DNA of 64,000 nucleotides, from positions 372,001-436,000 of the forward strand of contig NZ_UYYD01000002.1 of assembly GCF_900625105.1 (NCBI RefSeq). Direction: 5' to 3'. Under the pieces are notes generated by a model. That model was not told where the DNA came from, did not search any database, and worked only from the letters and a program-made list of their open reading frames with translations. Source of the stretch: Agathobaculum sp. Marseille-P7918 (GTDB lineage: Bacteria > Bacillota > Clostridia > Oscillospirales > Butyricicoccaceae). The first letter of the stretch is position 1. The number at the start of each line of letters is the position of its first letter. Shown piece by piece: positions 14,216 to 22,699 of this stretch. The position numbers and the translations under genes were made by a program.

Positions 14216-14308
14216 TAAAAAAAGTGCGCCTGCGCGCCTTACAATAAAAGGATTATGGGATTTTTCCGGCATCTCACCCTGCCGGGCCGCAGAAACGGAG
14301 AGAAAAAA

Positions 14309-15007
14309 TTGAAGCATACCATTCTGATCGCAGAGGACGACCGCGACATCATCGAGCTGCTGACCCTGTATCTGAGCAGCGAATTTACCGTGCAGTCGGT
14401 CACGGACGGCGCCGAGGCGCTCGAAGCCATCCGCGCGGGCGGGGTCTCGCTGGCGCTGGTGGACATCATGATGCCCGGTCTGAACGGCTATGAGCTGATC
14501 CAGCGCGTGCGCGAGTTCAGCAACCTGCCCATCATCATCCTGTCCGCCAAGAGCATGGAAACCGACAAAGTGCTCGGGCTCAACATCGGCGCGGACGCCT
14601 ACATCACCAAACCGTTCAACGCGCTCGAGGTGGTGGCCTATGTCAAGTCCGCGCTGCGGCGGTACTATCAACTGGGGGCGGACAGCGCGCCGACCGCCGC
14701 GCCGCGCGTCATCACGGTGGGCGAGCTGGAGCTGGACACGGACAAATTCGTGCTGCGCAAAAACGGCCTGATCGTGCCGCTGACCTCGACCGAGCTCAAG
14801 ATCCTCGCGGAAATGATGCGCTGCCCCGGCCGGGTGTTCACGCGCGCGCAGCTGTATGAATGTGTGGGCGGCACCTTTTACGAGAGCGACGACAACACCA
14901 TGATGGTACATATCTCCAACCTGCGCGCCAAGATCGAACACGATCCGGCATCCCCGCGCTATATCAAAACAGTCAGGGGGTTGGGCTACAAAATTGAAGA
15001 CCAATAA
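14309..15007 (+). CDS. OmpR-family response regulator
   Basis: 232-aa two-component regulator. The N-terminal receiver has the acidic pair in IAEDDRD, the phospho-acceptor D52 in LVDIMMPG, and a conserved Lys in YITKPF. The C-terminal winged-helix DNA-binding domain ends with VRGLGYKIE. I place the start at TTG 14309, because GGAGAG stands 5 bases upstream and the domain begins at once; the ATG at 14255 would add 18 unrelated residues. It overlaps the kinase gene by 14 bp. Its probable targets are the adjoining lipoprotein and dlt-like genes (inference). Confidence 0.92.
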   Translation: MKHTILIAEDDRDIIELLTLYLSSEFTVQSVTDGAEALEAIRAGGVSLALVDIMMPGLNGYELIQRVREFSNLPIIILSAKSMETDKVLGLNIGADAYITKPFNALEVVAYVKSALRRYYQLGADSAPTAAPRVITVGELELDTDKFVLRKNGLIVPLTSTELKILAEMMRCPGRVFTRAQLYECVGGTFYESDDNTMMVHISNLRAKIEHDPASPRYIKTVRGLGYKIEDQ

Positions 15008-16589
15008 ACTGCTGCTGGGCAAAAGTTTCCTGCGCACCTGCATCAGCTACTTTGTCCTGTGCTCGCTGCTGGTGTTTTTTATCAACGCCCTGCTCAACAC
15101 CTGGATCTCCGCACGGCTGGACAACGCCTTCCCCTCGCTGGGCAACATGCTGCAATACGGGGAAGCGCTCGCGCAGGACGATTTTGCCGCCATCCCCATG
15201 CGCCGCTTTAACGACTGCGCCTATATGGTGTTCGACGCGGACAGCCGTGTCCTTTATGCCTCGGACAACGAGTTCAAAGAGCATTTTCAGTCGGATGACC
15301 TGTGGATGATCAACGAATACGACTCCGATCTGTACTATACCGTGCAGGAAATGGCCGACATGCCGCGCGAAGGCTACTATTATATTGCGCTGCACCGTTT
15401 TGACGCCGAGACCGGCGAAGCGGAATTCCTCGACTACTGCATCATCGACGAAAACTACAACATCCTCGAAGGCGACCTGTTCCCCTGGCTCGATCAGCTG
15501 TCCGAACGGGAATTTGAGCTGCTGCAAGGCATTTACCAAAGCCAGTGGGAAATCTCCAAGGCCGTGTATTACACCACCGCCGGCGAGGAACGCACGCTGG
15601 TCTTTGTCTGCCCGCGTTTCACCGAAACCGCCTATCTCAACGCGCTGGAAAACGCCAACCGGCTGCTGCTGCTTTCCATCCCGATCATTCTGGCGGCCAT
15701 CCTGATGCTGGCCGTTCTGTTCCGCCGCCAGATCCGCCGCTCAATCCTGCCGCTGCACAAGGCCATCGTTGCCTACGGCGCGGGCCGACGAGTCGAAGTC
15801 AACACGGACGCGCTGCCTATCGAATTCCGGCAGGTGACCGACAGCTTCACCCATCTGCTCGACCGGCTCGAGCAGGTCAGTGCGGAAAAGCAGGCGGCCG
15901 ACGCGGACAAGCAGCGCATGCTTGCCGACCTGTCGCACGACCTGAAAACCCCGCTGACCGTCATTCAGGGCTATGCGCAGGCGCTGGTGGACGGCGTAGT
16001 GCCGCCGGACAAGCAGCGGCAATACCTTGAGACCATCTGCCGCAAGGCGTCGGACAGCACGGTGCTGATGAACTCGCTGTTCGACTACGTCCGTCTCGAG
16101 CATCCGGACTATGTGCTGCAAGCGGAGCGCGCCGACCTGTGCGAATTTTGCAAAAGCTATCTGGCGGAAAAATACCCCGAGATCGAGTCGCGCAGCTTTG
16201 TTTTGTCGCTTGACCTGCCCGAAACGCCGGTCATGGCGGCGTTCGATCCGCGCCTGCTCCGGCGGCTGCTGGAAAACCTGACCGCGAACGCGCTGCAATA
16301 CAACCCCGCCGGCACGACGCTGTTTTTCGGCCTCAAGGACGAGGCGGACCACATCTATCTGACCATTGCGGACAACGGCGTCGGCATTCCGGACGAGCTG
16401 GCCGATACGCTGTTCGAGCCGTTTGTCACCGGCAACCGCGCCCGCACCTCGGGCGGCGGCACCGGGCTGGGCATGGCGATCGTCAAAAAGGTGGCCGAAC
16501 TGCACGGCGGCTCGATCCGGCTGGTGCGGCCGCCACAGAACGGCTGGCACACCCAGTTCGAGCTGGTGCTGCCGCGATGCATCTTATAA
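14994..16589 (+). CDS. Sensor histidine kinase
   Basis: 531-aa membrane sensor kinase. A first span near residues 14-34 and a second near 220-240 bracket a ~180-residue extracytoplasmic sensor domain rich in acidic and aromatic residues. A HAMP-like linker and the HisKA helix follow, with H315 in LSHDLKTPL. The ATPase domain has LLENLTANALQYN, DNGVGIP and GGGTGLGMAI. The start is TTG 14994 inside the regulator gene, so the two are coupled. The signal is unknown. The neighbouring genes suggest cell-envelope stress or cationic peptides, an inference from context only. Confidence 0.9.
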   Translation: MKTNKLLLGKSFLRTCISYFVLCSLLVFFINALLNTWISARLDNAFPSLGNMLQYGEALAQDDFAAIPMRRFNDCAYMVFDADSRVLYASDNEFKEHFQSDDLWMINEYDSDLYYTVQEMADMPREGYYYIALHRFDAETGEAEFLDYCIIDENYNILEGDLFPWLDQLSEREFELLQGIYQSQWEISKAVYYTTAGEERTLVFVCPRFTETAYLNALENANRLLLLSIPIILAAILMLAVLFRRQIRRSILPLHKAIVAYGAGRRVEVNTDALPIEFRQVTDSFTHLLDRLEQVSAEKQAADADKQRMLADLSHDLKTPLTVIQGYAQALVDGVVPPDKQRQYLETICRKASDSTVLMNSLFDYVRLEHPDYVLQAERADLCEFCKSYLAEKYPEIESRSFVLSLDLPETPVMAAFDPRLLRRLLENLTANALQYNPAGTTLFFGLKDEADHIYLTIADNGVGIPDELADTLFEPFVTGNRARTSGGGTGLGMAIVKKVAELHGGSIRLVRPPQNGWHTQFELVLPRCIL

Positions 16590-16756: not shown

Positions 16757-17152
16757 ATGAAAACGATCAACCATAAAGCCGCAAAAGGCGTCGCTGCATT
16801 CTCTCTGGCCATGCTGATGGCACTGCCCGCACTGGCCGGCTGCTCGATGGAAAAGCCCAAGGCCGATGATGCCAAGCAGACCACCTCGCAGTCCCAGAGC
16901 ACAACGAGCAGCACCGCCAAGAGCAAGACCAGCACCCAGAAGAAGGCCGCGGTCAAGCAGTCCGGCGGCACGGCCGCTTCCAAGAAGAAGGCCACCAAGA
17001 AGGCTGCCAAGTCCACCGACAAGGCTTCTTCCACCCAGAAGGCTGCCAAGTCCACCGACAAGGCCGCTTCCACCCAGAAGTCCACGCAGTCTTCCAGCAA
17101 GACCGCTTCCACCCAGAAGGCAGCTTCCACCCAGAAGTCCGCCAGCAAGTAA
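16757..17152 (+). CDS. Lys/Ala/Ser/Thr-rich repeat lipoprotein
   Basis: 131-aa predicted lipoprotein. The signal sequence has a basic start, a hydrophobic core and lipobox L26-A27-G28-C29. The whole mature part (~100 aa) is low-complexity, made of Lys, Ala, Ser, Thr and Gln, with near-identical 13-residue repeats of the type AAKSTDKAxSTQK; it carries a large positive charge and almost no hydrophobic residues. It would be an extended, unstructured cationic chain on the outer face of the membrane. ATG 16757 has AAAGGAG upstream. It sits 42 bp before the dlt-like operon. No family recognised. Confidence 0.8.
   Translation: MKTINHKAAKGVAAFSLAMLMALPALAGCSMEKPKADDAKQTTSQSQSTTSSTAKSKTSTQKKAAVKQSGGTAASKKKATKKAAKSTDKASSTQKAAKSTDKAASTQKSTQSSSKTASTQKAASTQKSASK
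17002..17079 (+). repeat. 39-bp direct repeat (two full copies) inside the lipoprotein gene
   Basis: Near-identical 39-bp units begin at 17002 and 17041 (each starting GGCTGCCAAGTCCACCGAC) and encode the 13-residue lysine-rich repeat. Shorter partial copies (TCCACCCAGAAG) recur to 17143. Such arrays can change length by slippage. Confidence 0.85.
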
Positions 17153-17194: not shown

Positions 17195-18712
17195 ATGAAC
17201 AACATTCTGGAACTTTTAGAGCATACCACCGCCGTGCGGCCGGATAAAACCGCCGTCATCGACGAAAACGGCATCGACCGCTTTGAGACCCTGCTTTTCC
17301 GCAGCCGCTGCTGCGGCACGGCACTGGCCGCACATCTCTCCCCCACCACCCCGGTCCCGGTGCTGCTGGAAAAGGGCCGCGAAGCCCTGTATGCCTTTTT
17401 CGGTGCGGCGTACGCCGGCTGCTTTTATGTTCCGCTCTCGCCCGCGCTGCCGCAGCCACGGCTGGCACAAATCCTTTCAGTGCTCAACGCCCCTTGTCTC
17501 GTGACCGATCACGAACACGCAGCACTGGCCGCACAGCTGCCCGGCGTGGGACGCGTCCTGCTGGTCGAAGAGCTGCTGCAAACGCAGCCCGACGACGCGC
17601 TGTTGGCGCGTATCCGCAAAAACGCGATCGACGGCGACCCTCTGTACTGCAATTTCACCTCCGGCTCGACCGGCACGCCCAAGGGCGTGGTCGTCAGCCA
17701 CCGCTCCGTGCTGGATTTCATCCCTCCCTTCACCGAACTGTTCCGGATCGGTCCGGACGATATCATCGGCAATCAGGCGCCGCTTGATTTCGACGTTTCG
17801 GTCAAGGACATTTATTCCGCTATGCACACCGGTGCGACCCTCGTCCTGCTGCCGCGGCGGCTGTTCTCCCAGCCGTCCGCGCTGATGGACGCTCTGTGTA
17901 CGTACCGTGTCACCACGCTCATCTGGGCTGTTTCCGCGCTGTGCCTGGTGTCCTCCTTCCACGGTCTGGACTACCGCACGCCGGAAACGGTGAACAAGGT
18001 GCTGTTCAGCGGCGAAGTGATGCCGCCCAAGCACCTGAAAAGCTGGATGGAGCATTTGCCGCACGCGGATTTCGTCAACCTGTACGGCCCCACCGAGATC
18101 ACGTGCAACTGCACGTACCATAGGATAGAGAGTGGTCGGGATTATACAGCGGGCATCCCGCTCGGGACAGCGTTCCCGAACGAGCGGGTCTTCCTGCTGG
18201 ACGCGGTGGGACAGGAAATCCATCAGCCCGATCAGGAAGGCGAAATCTGTGTCAGCGGCGCCGCGCTCGCGCTCGGCTATTACAACAACCCCGAGCAGAC
18301 CCGCGCCGTATTCACCCAACACCCCGGCAACTCCCGCTATTTACAGCCGGTCTACCGCACGGGCGACCTCGGGCGCTGGAATGCCCGCGGCGAGCTGTGC
18401 TTCCTCGGCCGGAAGGATTTTCAGATCAAGCACATGGGCCACCGCATCGAGCTGGAAGAGATCGAGCGCGCGGTGCAGGAGGTCGAAGGCGTCAGCCGGT
18501 GCTGCTGCGTCTATGACGCGAACAAGGAACGGCTGCACGGTTTTTACACCGGCACGGCGGACAAGGCTGCGGTGCGCACCGCGCTCATGCAGCGGCTGCC
18601 CGTCTTTATGCTGCCGCGCACCCTCGAGCGGCTGGACAGCCTGCCGCTGACCGAAAACGGCAAAACCAACCGCAAGCTTCTGCTTGCACTGGCAAGAAAG
18701 GAGATCGTATGA
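17195..18712 (+). CDS. dltA: DltA-type amino acid--carrier protein ligase
   Basis: Adenylates an amino acid, D-alanine in the canonical enzyme, and loads it onto the phosphopantetheine arm of the DltC carrier. At 505 aa it matches DltA length. It has the adenylation core motif TSGSTGTPKGV near residue 155, NLYGPTE near residue 297, YRTGDLG near 389, the DltA-type FQIKHMGHRIELEEIE near 410, and the C-terminal catalytic Lys in ENGKTNRK. The substrate is not proven by these motifs. It is first in a five-gene set (ligase, PLP enzyme, carrier, MBOAT, SGNH). Its stop overlaps the next start (ATGA). Confidence 0.88.
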   Translation: MNNILELLEHTTAVRPDKTAVIDENGIDRFETLLFRSRCCGTALAAHLSPTTPVPVLLEKGREALYAFFGAAYAGCFYVPLSPALPQPRLAQILSVLNAPCLVTDHEHAALAAQLPGVGRVLLVEELLQTQPDDALLARIRKNAIDGDPLYCNFTSGSTGTPKGVVVSHRSVLDFIPPFTELFRIGPDDIIGNQAPLDFDVSVKDIYSAMHTGATLVLLPRRLFSQPSALMDALCTYRVTTLIWAVSALCLVSSFHGLDYRTPETVNKVLFSGEVMPPKHLKSWMEHLPHADFVNLYGPTEITCNCTYHRIESGRDYTAGIPLGTAFPNERVFLLDAVGQEIHQPDQEGEICVSGAALALGYYNNPEQTRAVFTQHPGNSRYLQPVYRTGDLGRWNARGELCFLGRKDFQIKHMGHRIELEEIERAVQEVEGVSRCCCVYDANKERLHGFYTGTADKAAVRTALMQRLPVFMLPRTLERLDSLPLTENGKTNRKLLLALARKEIV

Positions 18713-20034
18713 CCGAACAGCAAATGGAAACCCTGACCGCACAATACGGCTCGCCGCTGTATGTGTTCGATGTGCAGGTCCTGCGGCAGCGCATCGCGTT
18801 TTTGCGGCGCAATCTGCCGTACGGCGTCGGCCTGTGCTATGCCATCAAGGCCAATCCCTTTCTGCTGCGCGAGCTGTGCGGACAGGTGGAGCGTTTTGAA
18901 GTCTGCTCGCCCGGCGAGGCCGCAATCTGCCGCCGTTTGCAGATCCCGGCCGGGCAGCAGGTGATCTCGGGCGTCTATAAGACCCCGGCGGACATCGAGC
19001 GCATGATCGCGCAGAAAAACGGTCCGCGCCTGTTCACCGTGGAATCCCTGCGTCAGTTTGCGCTGCTCAGCCGACTGGCCGCGCGCTACCGCGTGACCAT
19101 CCATGTGCTGCTGCGCCTGACCAGCGGCAGCCAGTTCGGTCTGGAGCAGGAGGAGATCATCCAGATCATCCGCGGCCGCGCCGACCATCCCAACATCAAC
19201 ATCCGCGGCCTGCAATACTTTTCCGGCACGCAGAAGGCATCGCTCAAGCGCTTGCAGCGCGAACTGACCGCGCTGGACGATTTCGCCGTTTCGCTCGAGG
19301 AAAAACTGGGCTTTCCCGTGCACGAACTGGAGTTCGGCCCGGGCTTCCCGGTGCAGTATTTCTCGCCCGACAGCTTTGACGAAACCGAATTTCTCGCAGG
19401 TTTTTCCGCGATGCTCAAAAACCTGCGCTGCAAGGGGCATGTGACGCTCGAACTCGGGCGCAGCATCGCCGCCAGCTGCGGCACCTATCTGACCCGCGTG
19501 GTCGATGTCAAACGCAACAAAGGGCAGAATTACGCCATTCTCGACGGCGGCATCCACCATCTGGTGTATTACGGCCAGCACATGGCCATGCAGCTGCCGC
19601 CCCATCAGATGTACCCGCCCCGCACGGGCGAGACGCAGCCGTGGAACCTGTGCGGCTCGCTGTGCACCGTCAACGACATTCTGGTCAAGCAGCTGCCCGT
19701 GGCCGACCTCAAATGCGGCGACCTATTCGCCTTTTTGCAGACCGGCGCCTACTGCATGACCGAAGGCATCTCGCTTTTCCTCAGCCGCGCGCTGCCGCGC
19801 ATCGTGCTGCTGCAACAGGACGGCCGTCCGCTGCTGGTGCGCGACGCGCTGCCCACCGATGAAATCAACTCACCCAACTATGAAAGGACGGACAATTATG
19901 GAACAACTGCTTGCTATTCTGGAGGAACTTCAGCCCGGCGTGGATTACGCCACCTGCCGCAATCTGATCGATGCGCACTATCTGGACTCGCTGACCATTC
20001 TCGCGCTGGTCGCCGAGCTGGAAGACGCGTTTGA
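18709..20034 (+). CDS. PLP-dependent fold-III decarboxylase-like enzyme in the dlt-like operon
   Basis: Resembles the diaminopimelate/ornithine decarboxylase family. The alanine-racemase-like TIM barrel begins PLYVFDV, K47 in YAIKANP should bind PLP, and FGPGFPV and the C-terminal beta domain follow. C319 in GSLCTVND corresponds to the catalytic Cys of CESxD in DAP decarboxylase, but the Glu is Thr here; GAYCMTEG matches the usual GAY motif. Substrate unknown; decarboxylation or racemisation of an amino acid is possible. The frame overlaps the carrier gene by 137 bp, and its last ~50 residues look non-homologous and Arg-rich. A one-base shift near 19870 would end it at TGA 19880, where such a gene would be expected to stop. 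Confidence 0.8.
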   Translation: MTEQQMETLTAQYGSPLYVFDVQVLRQRIAFLRRNLPYGVGLCYAIKANPFLLRELCGQVERFEVCSPGEAAICRRLQIPAGQQVISGVYKTPADIERMIAQKNGPRLFTVESLRQFALLSRLAARYRVTIHVLLRLTSGSQFGLEQEEIIQIIRGRADHPNINIRGLQYFSGTQKASLKRLQRELTALDDFAVSLEEKLGFPVHELEFGPGFPVQYFSPDSFDETEFLAGFSAMLKNLRCKGHVTLELGRSIAASCGTYLTRVVDVKRNKGQNYAILDGGIHHLVYYGQHMAMQLPPHQMYPPRTGETQPWNLCGSLCTVNDILVKQLPVADLKCGDLFAFLQTGAYCMTEGISLFLSRALPRIVLLQQDGRPLLVRDALPTDEINSPNYERTDNYGTTACYSGGTSARRGLRHLPQSDRCALSGLADHSRAGRRAGRRV

Positions 20035-20128
20035 CATCACCATCCCGACCGTTGAGATCATTCCGGCCAACTTCAATTCCGCCGAGGATATGTGGGCCAT
20101 GATCGTCCGTTTACAGGAGGAAGGCTAA
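19898..20128 (+). CDS. dltC: DltC-like carrier protein
   Basis: 76-aa acidic acyl-carrier-type protein that would hold the activated amino acid on a 4'-phosphopantetheine arm. The attachment Ser is S31 in YLDSLTIL, and the following helix VAELEDAFDI is typical of DltC. GAAAGGACGG precedes ATG 19898. The longer in-frame start at 19859 adds residues with no family resemblance. It is followed after 3 bp by the MBOAT gene. Confidence 0.9.
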   Translation: MEQLLAILEELQPGVDYATCRNLIDAHYLDSLTILALVAELEDAFDITIPTVEIIPANFNSAEDMWAMIVRLQEEG

Positions 20129-20131
20129 TCC

Positions 20132-21724
20132 ATGACATCCTACTGCTCGCTGCTGTATCTGGCCGTTTTTCTGCCGGCGGCGGTGCTCGCTTACAAGTTC
20201 CTGCCCCAGCGCCTGCGCTGGGCGGCGCTTCTGGCAGCAAGTTATATCTTTTTCTGGTCGGTCAGCGGCAAGCTGTTGGTGTTTTTGCTGTTTTCCACTG
20301 TTTCCATTCACCATTTCGGCCTTTGGCTGACCGCCGAACAGCAGGACCGTGACCAGCGGCTGATCGCCGCTGCGCCGGCCGAACGCAAAGCGATCCGCAA
20401 GCGTTTCACCACGCGGCAGCGGCGCATTCTGGCGCTGGCCGTGCTGGTGCACGTCGGCACCCTGCTGACGCTCAAATACGCGGTCTTTTTCAGCACGAAC
20501 CTGAACACGCTGCTGCATTCGCTTCGTCTTCCGGTTTCGCTGCCCGTTCCCTCGTTTTTACTGCCCATCGGCATCTCGTTTTACACTTTGCAGGCCCTTT
20601 CCTATCTGCTCGATGTCTACCGCGGCACGATCCGCGCCGACCGCAATCTGGCGCGCCTCGCACTCTTCCTCGGCTTTTTCCCGCAGATCATGGAAGGGCC
20701 GATCTGCCGCTATGGGCAGACCGCGCAGCAGCTGTGGGAAGGCCGCCCGGTCACCTGGCAGGGCCTGACCTTCGGCATGCAGCGCATCCTGTTCGGCCTG
20801 ATTAAGAAAATCGTCATCGCCGACCGACTCAACCTGCTCATCAAAACCGTTTTCAACGATTACACCACCTACAACGGCGGCGTGATCGCACTGGCCATGG
20901 TGTGCTACACCTGCCAGCTTTACATGGACTTCTCCGGCACGATGGATGTGGTCATCGGCAGTGCCGAAATGTTCGGCGTGCGCATGCCTGAAAACTTCCG
21001 TCAGCCGTTTTTCTCCCGCAGCATTTCCGAGTTCTGGATGCGCTGGCACATCACGCTGGGCACCTGGTTTAAGGACTATGTGTTCTACCCGCTTTCCATG
21101 TCCGGCCCGCTGAAAAAGCTGACCGGCGCGGCGCGTCCCCGCTTGGGCAACCACTACGGTCCGCTGGTCTCCGGCTCGATCGCGCTGGGCGTGGTCTGGC
21201 TGTTCAACGGCCTGTGGCACGGCGCGGGCTGGCACTACATCTTTTTCGGCCTGTACCACTTCGCGCTCATCCTGACGGGCAACCTGATCGACCCGCTGGC
21301 GCAGCGCGTGACCAAGTTCCTGCACATCGACCGCAGCTGCATGCCCTACCGCATCTTCCAGATCGTGCGCACCGCGCTGCTGGTGTGCGTGGGCGAGCTG
21401 TTCTTCCGCGCCAACGGCCTGCGCGCGGGTCTGGCGATGTTCCGCACGATGGTGACGGATTTCTCGCTGAGCTCCTTCCTCGACCGCAGCTTCCTGTCGC
21501 TCGGCATGGATAAGATGGACTTTGCGATCGTTTTGATCGCGGTCGGCATTGTGCTGCTGGTCGGCATCCTGCGCGAGCGCGGCGTGCCGCTGCGCGAGTC
21601 GATCGCGCGCCGCCCACTTGCCTTGCGCTGGTCGATTTATTACGCTGCTTTCTTCTTTCTCGTCATTTTCGGCGCATACGGCGTCGGCTATGTGCCGGTC
21701 GATCCGATTTACGCCGCATTTTAA
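20132..21724 (+). CDS. dltB: MBOAT family O-acyltransferase (DltB-like)
   Basis: 530-aa membrane-bound O-acyltransferase with about eleven spans. In the Dlt pathway DltB moves the carrier-bound D-alanine across the membrane toward teichoic acid. The catalytic His is H363 in LFNGLWHGAGWHY. Other family markers are PIGISFYTLQALSYLLDVYRG and MDFSGTMDVVIGSAEMFG. GGAGGAAGG precedes the ATG. MBOAT proteins of this group also acetylate polysaccharides. The ligase and carrier genes beside it favour aminoacylation. Confidence 0.88.
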   Translation: MTSYCSLLYLAVFLPAAVLAYKFLPQRLRWAALLAASYIFFWSVSGKLLVFLLFSTVSIHHFGLWLTAEQQDRDQRLIAAAPAERKAIRKRFTTRQRRILALAVLVHVGTLLTLKYAVFFSTNLNTLLHSLRLPVSLPVPSFLLPIGISFYTLQALSYLLDVYRGTIRADRNLARLALFLGFFPQIMEGPICRYGQTAQQLWEGRPVTWQGLTFGMQRILFGLIKKIVIADRLNLLIKTVFNDYTTYNGGVIALAMVCYTCQLYMDFSGTMDVVIGSAEMFGVRMPENFRQPFFSRSISEFWMRWHITLGTWFKDYVFYPLSMSGPLKKLTGAARPRLGNHYGPLVSGSIALGVVWLFNGLWHGAGWHYIFFGLYHFALILTGNLIDPLAQRVTKFLHIDRSCMPYRIFQIVRTALLVCVGELFFRANGLRAGLAMFRTMVTDFSLSSFLDRSFLSLGMDKMDFAIVLIAVGIVLLVGILRERGVPLRESIARRPLALRWSIYYAAFFFLVIFGAYGVGYVPVDPIYAAF

Positions 21725-21739
21725 GGAGGTGTGTCCCAT

Positions 21740-22699
21740 TTGAAAACCCGTTTTGCGCCCTTGATCAAAGGGGCCTGCTTTCTCGCGCTGCTGTGCGCGC
21801 TGATGGTGGCCGCCTCCTATCTGTTCATGCCCAAAAACAACCACAAGGCCTTCGGCGTGAGCGACGCCGAAATGCTGGCCAGCGGTATTCTGGGCGAAAA
21901 GGAGGACTCGATCGACGTGCTGGTCGTGGGCGACAGCGAGGCATACAGCTCGATCTCGCCCATGCAGATCTGGGAGGAGCGCGGCTTCCGCTCCTACCTG
22001 TGCAGCACGCCCGCACAGCCGCTCTATGACTCCTACCGCTTTCTGCGGCAGGCGCTCGAGCGGCAGAGCCCCAAAGTTGTCATACTGGAGACCAACGCGA
22101 TCTTCCGGCCGTACAAACTCAACGACTATCTGCTCTCCCGCGCGAAAAACCTGTTTTCCGTGCTGCGCTACCACGACCGCTGGAAGGCGCTCAAGGTCAA
22201 CGACTTCGGCCGTCCGGTCGAATACACCTGGACGGACGACCTCAAGGGCTTCCGCTATAACCCGGCGGTGGCCGCGGCCAGCACGCAGAACTACATGCTG
22301 CCGTCCGAGGCATCCGCGCCCATCCCGACGCTCAACGAAGCCTGTCTGGAGGACATGATCGCGCTGTGCCAGGAAAACAACGCCGAGCTGCTGCTGGTCA
22401 GCACGCCGAGCACGATCAACTGGAACAACGCGCGGCACAACAGCATCGCGGCCTTCGCCAAGGAGAACAACCTGACCTATCTGGACCTCAACACCATGAC
22501 CAAGGAAGTGCCCATCGACTGGGCGCGCGACACGCGCGACCGCGGCGACCATCTCAACTACGCCGGCGCGGTCAAGGTGTCCTCTTTCCTGGGCAAGTAC
22601 TTGCAGGATACCTATGGTCTGGCCGACCAGCGCGACGCAGCGCACGACAACAGCTGGAACGACGCGCTGGGACGCTATCGCAACATTGTTCGCGGATAA
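21740..22699 (+). CDS. SGNH-type envelope protein, DltD-like partner of the MBOAT
   Basis: 319-aa protein with one N-terminal membrane span (about residues 10-30) and an extracytoplasmic SGNH-hydrolase-like domain. The nucleophile motif is GDSEAYSS (Ser near residue 66) and the C-terminal catalytic pair lies in DRGDHLNYAG. This is the fold of DltD and AlgJ/AlgX-type proteins that work with MBOAT enzymes outside the membrane. Start: AAGGAGGT directly abuts GTG 21731, so TTG 21740, nine bases further on, is preferred. It is the last gene of the operon. Confidence 0.82.
   Translation: MKTRFAPLIKGACFLALLCALMVAASYLFMPKNNHKAFGVSDAEMLASGILGEKEDSIDVLVVGDSEAYSSISPMQIWEERGFRSYLCSTPAQPLYDSYRFLRQALERQSPKVVILETNAIFRPYKLNDYLLSRAKNLFSVLRYHDRWKALKVNDFGRPVEYTWTDDLKGFRYNPAVAAASTQNYMLPSEASAPIPTLNEACLEDMIALCQENNAELLLVSTPSTINWNNARHNSIAAFAKENNLTYLDLNTMTKEVPIDWARDTRDRGDHLNYAGAVKVSSFLGKYLQDTYGLADQRDAAHDNSWNDALGRYRNIVRG

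What the first reader, a model, noticed from the sequence alone, without database searches (positions are those of the whole stretch)
17195..22699. A dlt-like operon with a PLP decarboxylase-like enzyme built in
The order is ligase, PLP fold-III enzyme, carrier, MBOAT, SGNH. Canonical dlt operons lack the PLP gene. It is coupled to the ligase by an ATGA overlap, so the products probably act together. The PLP enzyme keeps K47 and C319, but Thr replaces the Glu of the CESxD motif. It might make or convert the amino acid that the ligase activates, which would mean the polymer carries something other than plain D-alanine. The operon order is seen directly; the altered substrate is inference.
Basis: partly seen in the sequence, partly recalled or inferred. 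Interest (0 to 1): 0.72.

Follow-up and report, generated by a model that had tools for sequence, protein, structure and literature searches.

The report
Dlt-like operon with built-in decarboxylase
Many gut Clostridia carry a cousin of the D-alanine cell-surface decorating system with a decarboxylase-like enzyme built in and a ligase pocket unlike the D-alanine one, so they probably decorate their envelope with a different, as yet unidentified, amino acid.

Summary
Five coupled genes encode an adenylating ligase, a fold-III PLP enzyme, a carrier, an MBOAT and an SGNH protein. The order is not local: 72 of the 80 best relatives, mostly Clostridia, show it exactly.

It is not a canonical dlt operon. 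Ligase, carrier and MBOAT score far below the DltA, DltC and DltB cut-offs. The ligase pocket code (DVKILSLCNK) is nearly invariant and its C-N-K ending occurs in none of 58 other ligases compared, 12 DltA-like ones included. No DltD match exists in the genome. The MBOAT carries its own C-terminal shuttle tyrosine, 78 of 78 copies that reach it.

The PLP enzyme is not LysA: it keeps Lys47 and Cys319 but lacks LysA's Glu and Arg, as BtrK and VinO-like enzymes do. Sister operons hold a GNAT acetyltransferase in the same slot.

Best reading: an acidic amino acid is loaded, decarboxylated on the carrier (as BtrK does) and esterified outside. Against it: the ligase has an alpha-amino-acid-type loop. 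Substrate, timing and product are inference. New variant of a known kind.

The parts
17195..18712 (+). Stand-alone adenylating ligase (DltA-like / NRPS A-domain type), pocket code D200 V201 K204 I243 L270 S272 L296 C304 N305 K490
   Evidence: TIGR01733 over cut-off (324 vs 317.4), DltA models far under cut-off; pocket code nearly invariant in the window and 80 loci
18709..20034 (+). Fold-III (alanine-racemase-fold) PLP decarboxylase-like enzyme; Lys47, Cys319, Thr320; reading frame overlaps the carrier gene
19898..20128 (+). Aminoacyl-type carrier protein; phosphopantetheine Ser31 (codon 19988-19990, LDSLT)
   Evidence: PF00550 just over cut-off, 22.4 vs 20.8; peptidyl, aminoacyl and D-alanyl carriers among weak PDB matches
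20132..21724 (+). MBOAT with its own C-terminal shuttle-like motif PIYAAF, Tyr527 (codon 21710-21712)
   Evidence: PF03062; DltB matches E about 1e-24; Tyr527 in 78 of 78 sequences that reach it, of 79 aligned
21731..22699 (+). Membrane-anchored SGNH acyltransferase-like protein (Ser69, Asp270, His274 counted from 21731); probable start TTG 21740
14255..15007 (+). OmpR-family response regulator, linked, possible regulator
   Evidence: PF00072 and PF00486; a regulator and a kinase within 6 kb upstream in 25 of 57 testable loci
14994..16589 (+). Sensor histidine kinase, linked
   Evidence: PF00512 and PF02518; sensor part also similar in 19 of 57 testable loci

Best explanation
A carrier-protein-driven envelope aminoacylation system related to Dlt. 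The ligase adenylates an amino acid that is probably acidic (Asp- or Glu-like, carboxylate read by Lys204) and loads it on the carrier. The PLP enzyme, a BtrK-like fold-III decarboxylase, removes the free alpha-carboxylate while the acyl group sits on the carrier, giving an omega-aminoacyl thioester such as beta-alanyl or GABA. The MBOAT passes the group to its own C-terminal Tyr527, and the SGNH protein moves it to an extracellular polymer such as a teichoic acid. Shown: genes, order, conservation, conserved catalytic residues, non-DltA pocket, non-LysA decarboxylase pocket, C-terminal tyrosine. Inferred: acidic substrate, loading through the side-chain carboxylate, on-carrier timing, product and acceptor.
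For: Order exact in 72 of 80 loci. The C-N-K ending of the pocket code occurs in 11 of 11 PLP-type rows and 0 of 58 others. Lys204 is in 78 of 78 readable of 81 sequences. PLP enzyme: CT (CS in 2 of 11 rows) and no LysA-type Arg; BtrK tied for best fold match and described as decarboxylating BtrI-S-glutamate (PMC7857480 passages). Of 16 plasmid neighbourhoods of PLP relatives that I chose to look at, 10 are neither LysA, siderophore nor unannotated, and 9 of these 10 have an adenylating ligase or a carrier annotated nearby (ligase; carrier: 52, 62; both: 54, 59, 63, 68; neither: 57). Sister operons hold a GNAT enzyme in the same slot. Tyr527 in 78 of 78, with the mechanism of PMC12148441 (abstract and passages).
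Against: The ligase keeps Asp200 and a full-length beta13-14 loop, as in alpha-amino-acid enzymes, unlike the shortened loop of the VinN-like ligases. If it activates the alpha-carboxylate, alpha-decarboxylation on the carrier is impossible. Lys at this position is also found in sister ligases with no PLP enzyme, so it does not point to decarboxylation. PLP-type ligases are one clade, so code and slot may reflect one event. DAP decarboxylases match the fold as well as BtrK does, and the tree does not group our enzymes with BtrK. No substrate was tested.
Confidence: 0.45

Rival explanations
1. The PLP enzyme works before loading: it decarboxylates a free precursor and supplies the product, which the ligase then activates and the MBOAT-SGNH pair exports.
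For: Gene coupling fits either order of action: ATGA-type overlap in 35 of 55 measured loci. LysA-type enzymes of this fold act on free amino acids. The ligase loop is of alpha-amino-acid type.
Against: The LysA Glu and Arg (which read the free distal end of DAP, recalled) are missing. An invariant Lys204 in the ligase pocket suggests that a carboxylate is still present at activation.
Confidence: 0.25
2. The PLP enzyme does not alpha-decarboxylate: it racemises the amino acid or removes a side-chain carboxylate on the carrier, for example turning aspartyl into alanyl, so the polymer ends up with an ordinary or D-configured amino acid.
For: Fits alpha-carboxylate activation and the lack of a DltA-like ligase above 303.5 bits in 26 of 26 PLP-bearing genomes. 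The Ala_racemase_N model also matches, at 36 bits.
Against: By title, nearly all of the 50 rows are amino-acid decarboxylases; no precedent for the other reactions in this subfamily is known to me.
Confidence: 0.18
3. It is an ordinary D-alanine dlt operon with an unrelated PLP gene inserted.
For: Gene order resembles dlt. Pocket positions vary among DltA-like ligases too.
Against: Pocket differs from 12 of 12 DltA-like ligases at four positions; the ligase is outside the DltA clade; the PLP gene is kept across the examined loci.
Confidence: 0.07

Closest known systems
Dlt teichoic acid D-alanylation (DltABCD with DltX)
   Same: Adenylating ligase, small carrier, MBOAT and SGNH protein
   Different: Extra PLP enzyme; different ligase pocket; shuttle-like Tyr on the MBOAT instead of a DltX; no match to the DltD family; DltA, DltB and DltC models all under cut-off
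PatA/PatB-type MBOAT-SGNH O-acetylation
   Same: C-terminal shuttle-like hexapeptide on the MBOAT itself; SGNH partner
   Different: Donor is presumably a carrier protein with its own ligase, whereas PMC12148441 (passages) says the other MBOAT-SGNH pathways lack a carrier; first motif residue Pro instead of Phe
BtrI/BtrK of butirosin biosynthesis
   Same: Fold-III decarboxylase with CT motif and DGG[IM]HH; a carrier in the pathway
   Different: BtrK is in an antibiotic pathway; its loading enzyme (BtrJ, recalled) is of another fold; our enzymes form a separate clade
VinN/VinO-type ligase and decarboxylase of macrolactam clusters
   Same: Adjacent adenylating ligase and CT-type fold-III PLP enzyme
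   Different: VinN-like loop is shortened; those clusters carry a methylaspartate mutase, ours does not; one of them sits beside a polyketide synthase
Exosortase-A-associated ligase and PLP decarboxylase (TIGR03098, TIGR03099)
   Same: TIGR03099 is the best NCBIfam model for our PLP enzyme; same ligase-PLP adjacency
   Different: 173.7 bits against a cut-off of 478.45; function of that pair also unknown to me; beside glycosyltransferase genes, no MBOAT or SGNH annotated

Membership tests
Dlt system | Ligase scores as DltA (TIGR01734, PRK04813) | tested here: not met
   257.4 vs 559.85 and 259.2 vs 476 bits. The TIGR01734 cut-off is strict (2 of 291 class genomes pass; 10 more loci score 483-551), but ours is far below those too and outside their clade
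Dlt system | D-Ala pocket residues L198, C269, V301 (B. cereus numbering) | tested here: not met
   V201, S272, C304 in the aligned positions. Weak test for two of them: among 12 DltA-like loci L198 is in 10, C269 in 4, V301 in 12
Dlt system | Carrier scores as DltC | tested here: not met
   28.6 vs 68 bits; the phosphopantetheine Ser is present
Dlt system | MBOAT scores as DltB (TIGR04091) | tested here: not met
   164.9 vs 375 bits, clearly homologous
Dlt system | DltD-family SGNH protein | tested here: not met
   PF04914 finds nothing in the whole genome; the protein here has an SGNH fold, and DltD is at Foldseek rank 50
Dlt system | Separate DltX microprotein | not tested
   Not searched for; a shuttle-like motif sits on the MBOAT
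Dlt system | D-alanine on the polymer | not testable with these tools
   Needs chemistry
MBOAT-SGNH acyl shuttle pathways | C-terminal FXYXXF motif with invariant Tyr | tested here: inconclusive
   Tyr in 78 of 78; first residue is Pro, not Phe; last residue Phe, in two sequences Tyr
LysA (diaminopimelate decarboxylase) | TIGR01048 cut-off; CE motif and LIRP-type Arg | tested here: not met
   154.5 vs 297.9 bits; CT and no Arg. A better LysA candidate, 277.5 bits and also under the cut-off, lies elsewhere in the genome
BtrK-like conjugate-acting fold-III decarboxylases | PLP Lys, catalytic Cys, CT instead of CE | tested here: met
   CS instead of CT in L076 and L115
BtrK-like conjugate-acting fold-III decarboxylases | Tree grouping with BtrK | tested here: inconclusive
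   Own clade 100/100; deep order unresolved
BtrK-like conjugate-acting fold-III decarboxylases | Acts on a carrier-bound substrate | not testable with these tools
   Needs an assay
Exosortase-A PLP decarboxylase TIGR03099 | Curated cut-off | tested here: not met
   173.7 vs 478.45 bits
VinN-type ligase | Shortened beta13-14 loop with Lys-Arg | tested here: not met
   Full-length loop ITCNCTYH, against a loop three columns shorter in the two VinN-like ligases

The most novel reading that the evidence does not exclude
Clostridia of the gut and elsewhere decorate an envelope polymer with an omega-amino acid (beta-alanine, GABA or similar) that is made on the carrier by decarboxylating a loaded acidic amino acid. 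It is one of several Dlt-like pathways in which a tailoring enzyme (PLP decarboxylase or GNAT acyltransferase) sits between ligase and carrier and sets the chemistry of the surface charge.
Probability: 0.33. Interest if true: 0.85.

Novelty: new variant of a known kind. Interest (0 to 1): 0.68.

Why it matters
D-alanylation is the textbook way Gram-positives tune surface charge and resist cationic peptides. If this operon installs a different amino acid, common gut species (Ruminococcus bromii, Agathobaculum, Pseudoflavonifractor among the loci) have an undescribed surface chemistry, relevant to host peptides and immune recognition, and reading these genes as dltA and dltB would mislead. It also suggests a carrier-fed MBOAT with a built-in shuttle tyrosine, joining the Dlt and PatA designs, and a tailoring slot that predicts further chemistries. 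The key claim is testable with three purified proteins.

Tried and rejected
Rejected: D-alanine pathway with a stray gene (pocket and conservation). Rejected: housekeeping LysA (missing LysA residues; a better LysA candidate elsewhere in the genome). Rejected: a VinN-type beta-amino-acid ligase (loop not shortened). Rejected: reading the Glu-to-Thr change as special to this gene.

Led nowhere or weak: A profile search of the PDB with the SGNH alignment found nothing. DltD is not among the 50 rows, though Foldseek lists it at rank 50. Literature searches (only titles, counts and abstract starts seen) listed no paper whose title or abstract start describes a PLP decarboxylase in a dlt-like or MBOAT operon; one search listed 15 of 25 and one search listed 15 of 307, and many journals are not in the library. 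Searches for two recalled codes found nothing; PMC12283262 passages give DAQDLGVVDK for Glu/Gln, which resembles the GNAT-type sister ligases, not ours. Other Ser, Glu and iso-Glu codes that I compared were recalled. No acceptor polymer was identified: sulfatase-family proteins exist in the genome, and of two scanned one matches the LtaS model at 47.5 bits against a cut-off of 970 and the other does not. The row ownLysA was an antisense frame and is disregarded; own LysA is not in the tree. In one search, 4 of 12 DltA sequences came out empty; all 12 are. The ligase tree left out 21 near-duplicate rows.
Full report
What is there. The window lies in a 2.8 Mb genome whose nearest named relatives at this locus are Agathobaculum MAGs. 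At 17195-22699 five genes run on one strand: ligase, PLP enzyme, carrier, MBOAT, SGNH. Ligase and PLP genes overlap by ATGA. The PLP frame continues 137 nt into the carrier gene; in 14 of 14 genus or family genes it has no stop before the carrier start, ending about 20 to 44 codons beyond it. In the 80-locus set a four-base overlap between ligase and PLP gene occurs in 35 of the 55 loci that I measured. The long overlap of PLP and carrier genes shows in 11 of 63 measured loci; in the other 52 the PLP stop lies 71 nt or more before the carrier's Ser codon, so that the overlap is short or absent.

Conservation. A relative of the PLP enzyme at E 1e-40 is present in 14 of 87 family genomes, 13 of them among the 25 of the genus; among near-complete genomes of the family it is 6 of 52. 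All 13 relatives fetched have the five-gene order, two of them cut by a contig end. In the order, 16 of 394 genomes have a match at 1e-60. Of the 80, 72 show the exact order, 4 show LIG-PLP-MBO-SGN-ACP-MBO-SGN, 3 are cut by contig ends and 1 is rearranged. By record title they include Ruminococcus bromii, Pseudoflavonifractor, Faecousia, Catenibacillus scindens and Acetobacterium wieringae, and MAGs labelled Traorella and Eggerthellaceae. The gene set is therefore a conserved but patchily distributed unit.

Ligase. The closest curated model, and the only one of the 25 shown that passes its cut-off, is the general amino-acid adenylation domain; both DltA models are far below theirs. In the own genome the next DltA-like match after this gene scores 76 bits. 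In 26 of 26 PLP-bearing genomes nothing exceeds 303.5 bits with the DltA model. The cut-off (559.85) alone would be an unfair test: class-wide only 2 of 291 genomes pass it, but 10 more loci score 483-551. I used these 12 as DltA-like references by score alone. The ten specificity positions, placed by alignment motifs whose GrsA numbering I recall, read D V K I L S L C N K and hardly vary: D200, V201 and K204 in 78 of 78 readable of 81 sequences, C304 and N305 in 80 of 80. DltA contacts the D-Ala methyl with L198 and C269 and the amino group with D197, G295 and V301 (PMC11253843, passages); here the aligned residues to L198, C269 and V301 are V201, S272 and C304. Among the 12 DltA-like loci L198 is kept in 10, the Cys in only 4 and V301 in 12, and none has Lys, Leu, Cys or Asn at the positions of K204, L296, C304 and N305 respectively.

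To see whether the pocket follows the operon type I took 40 regions around the stand-alone ligases (frames under 600 aa) in the capped list, leaving out four already known as PLP-type (G098, G134, G145, G160), plus 6 regions from the genus. Four of the 40 are PLP-type (one of them, G127, was already known). These and 7 earlier loci, 11 rows in all, end in C-N-K; none of the 58 other rows does, the 12 DltA-like included. GNAT-type operons have D-x-[KQ]-x-x-x-x-V-D-K in 7 of 7 rows, and most rows with carrier and MBOAT directly downstream read DAKCAGLGMK (17 of 20). PLP-type ligases form one clade (100/100) apart from the DltA clade (100/99) (50 rows after 21 near-duplicates were left out), so this association may come from a single event.

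I looked at 16 plasmid neighbourhoods of PLP relatives, chosen by me from the lists. Four are annotated LysA, one is a siderophore cluster without a carrier, one is unannotated. Of the other 10, nine have a ligase or a carrier annotated in the stretch (ligase; carrier: 52, 62; both: 54, 59, 63, 68); one search has neither. Two also carry a methylaspartate mutase, as vicenistatin-type clusters do (recalled). Many other plasmid hits are named LysA.

Tailoring slot. In three genus genomes a paralogous operon has a GNAT acetyltransferase between ligase and carrier, and four of the 40 class-wide regions show the same (with a model built from two of these proteins; weakest scores 42 and 48 bits). 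Sister systems thus place different modifying enzymes at the same spot. This favours the idea that the PLP enzyme modifies what the ligase loads, although it does not prove that it acts on the carrier.

Regulation. A VanR/PhoB-like regulator and a kinase lie directly upstream (best models, none over cut-off). A regulator and a kinase are found within 6 kb upstream in 25 of 57 loci with enough sequence, some only weakly similar; 19 of 57 also match the sensor part.

How it probably works, and what is weak. The economical reading is loading of an acidic amino acid, on-carrier decarboxylation, transfer to Tyr527 and then by the SGNH protein to a polymer. The weakest link is orientation: the full-length loop and Asp200 suggest that the amino group and the activated carboxylate are neighbours, as in alpha-amino acids; then an alpha-decarboxylase could not act after loading. 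Lys at the Lys204 position occurs in sister ligases with no PLP enzyme, so an acidic substrate is only a guess.

Verdict. A real, conserved and apparently undescribed variant of the Dlt/MBOAT-SGNH kind; papers were searched, of which listings only were seen.

Noticed in passing
L174:2761-8701, L176:5002-10996, L177:4643-8788: Sister operons in the genus: ligase, GNAT acetyltransferase, carrier, MBOAT; in L174 the next protein has a polysaccharide deacetylase domain behind an SGNH-like part (SGNH by eye).
   Followed up: partly
L074, L085, L089, L105: One ligase, PLP gene and carrier with two MBOAT-SGNH pairs, as if two acceptors were served.
   Followed up: no
window 19898-20034: PLP frame overlaps the carrier gene out of frame by 137 nt; a long overlap is seen in all 14 genus or family genes checked and in 11 of 63 measured loci of the wider set.
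   Followed up: partly
window 14255-16589: Two-component system with a related sensor part lies beside the operon in part of the loci, sometimes in the other orientation.
   Followed up: partly
window 16757-17152: Small Lys-, Ala- and Ser-rich protein with a lipobox-like signal (by eye) directly upstream of the operon; no Pfam match as read from 16679.
   Followed up: no
L182, L191, L192, L193: Two ligases in tandem with different pocket codes followed by a small MBOAT.
   Followed up: no
L183: Ligase, PLP gene and carrier with no MBOAT or SGNH detected in the 11 kb stretch; an ABC ATPase and permease downstream (by eye).
   Followed up: partly
L115: The operon, rearranged, in a MAG labelled Eggerthellaceae: transfer across phyla or binning error.
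   Followed up: no
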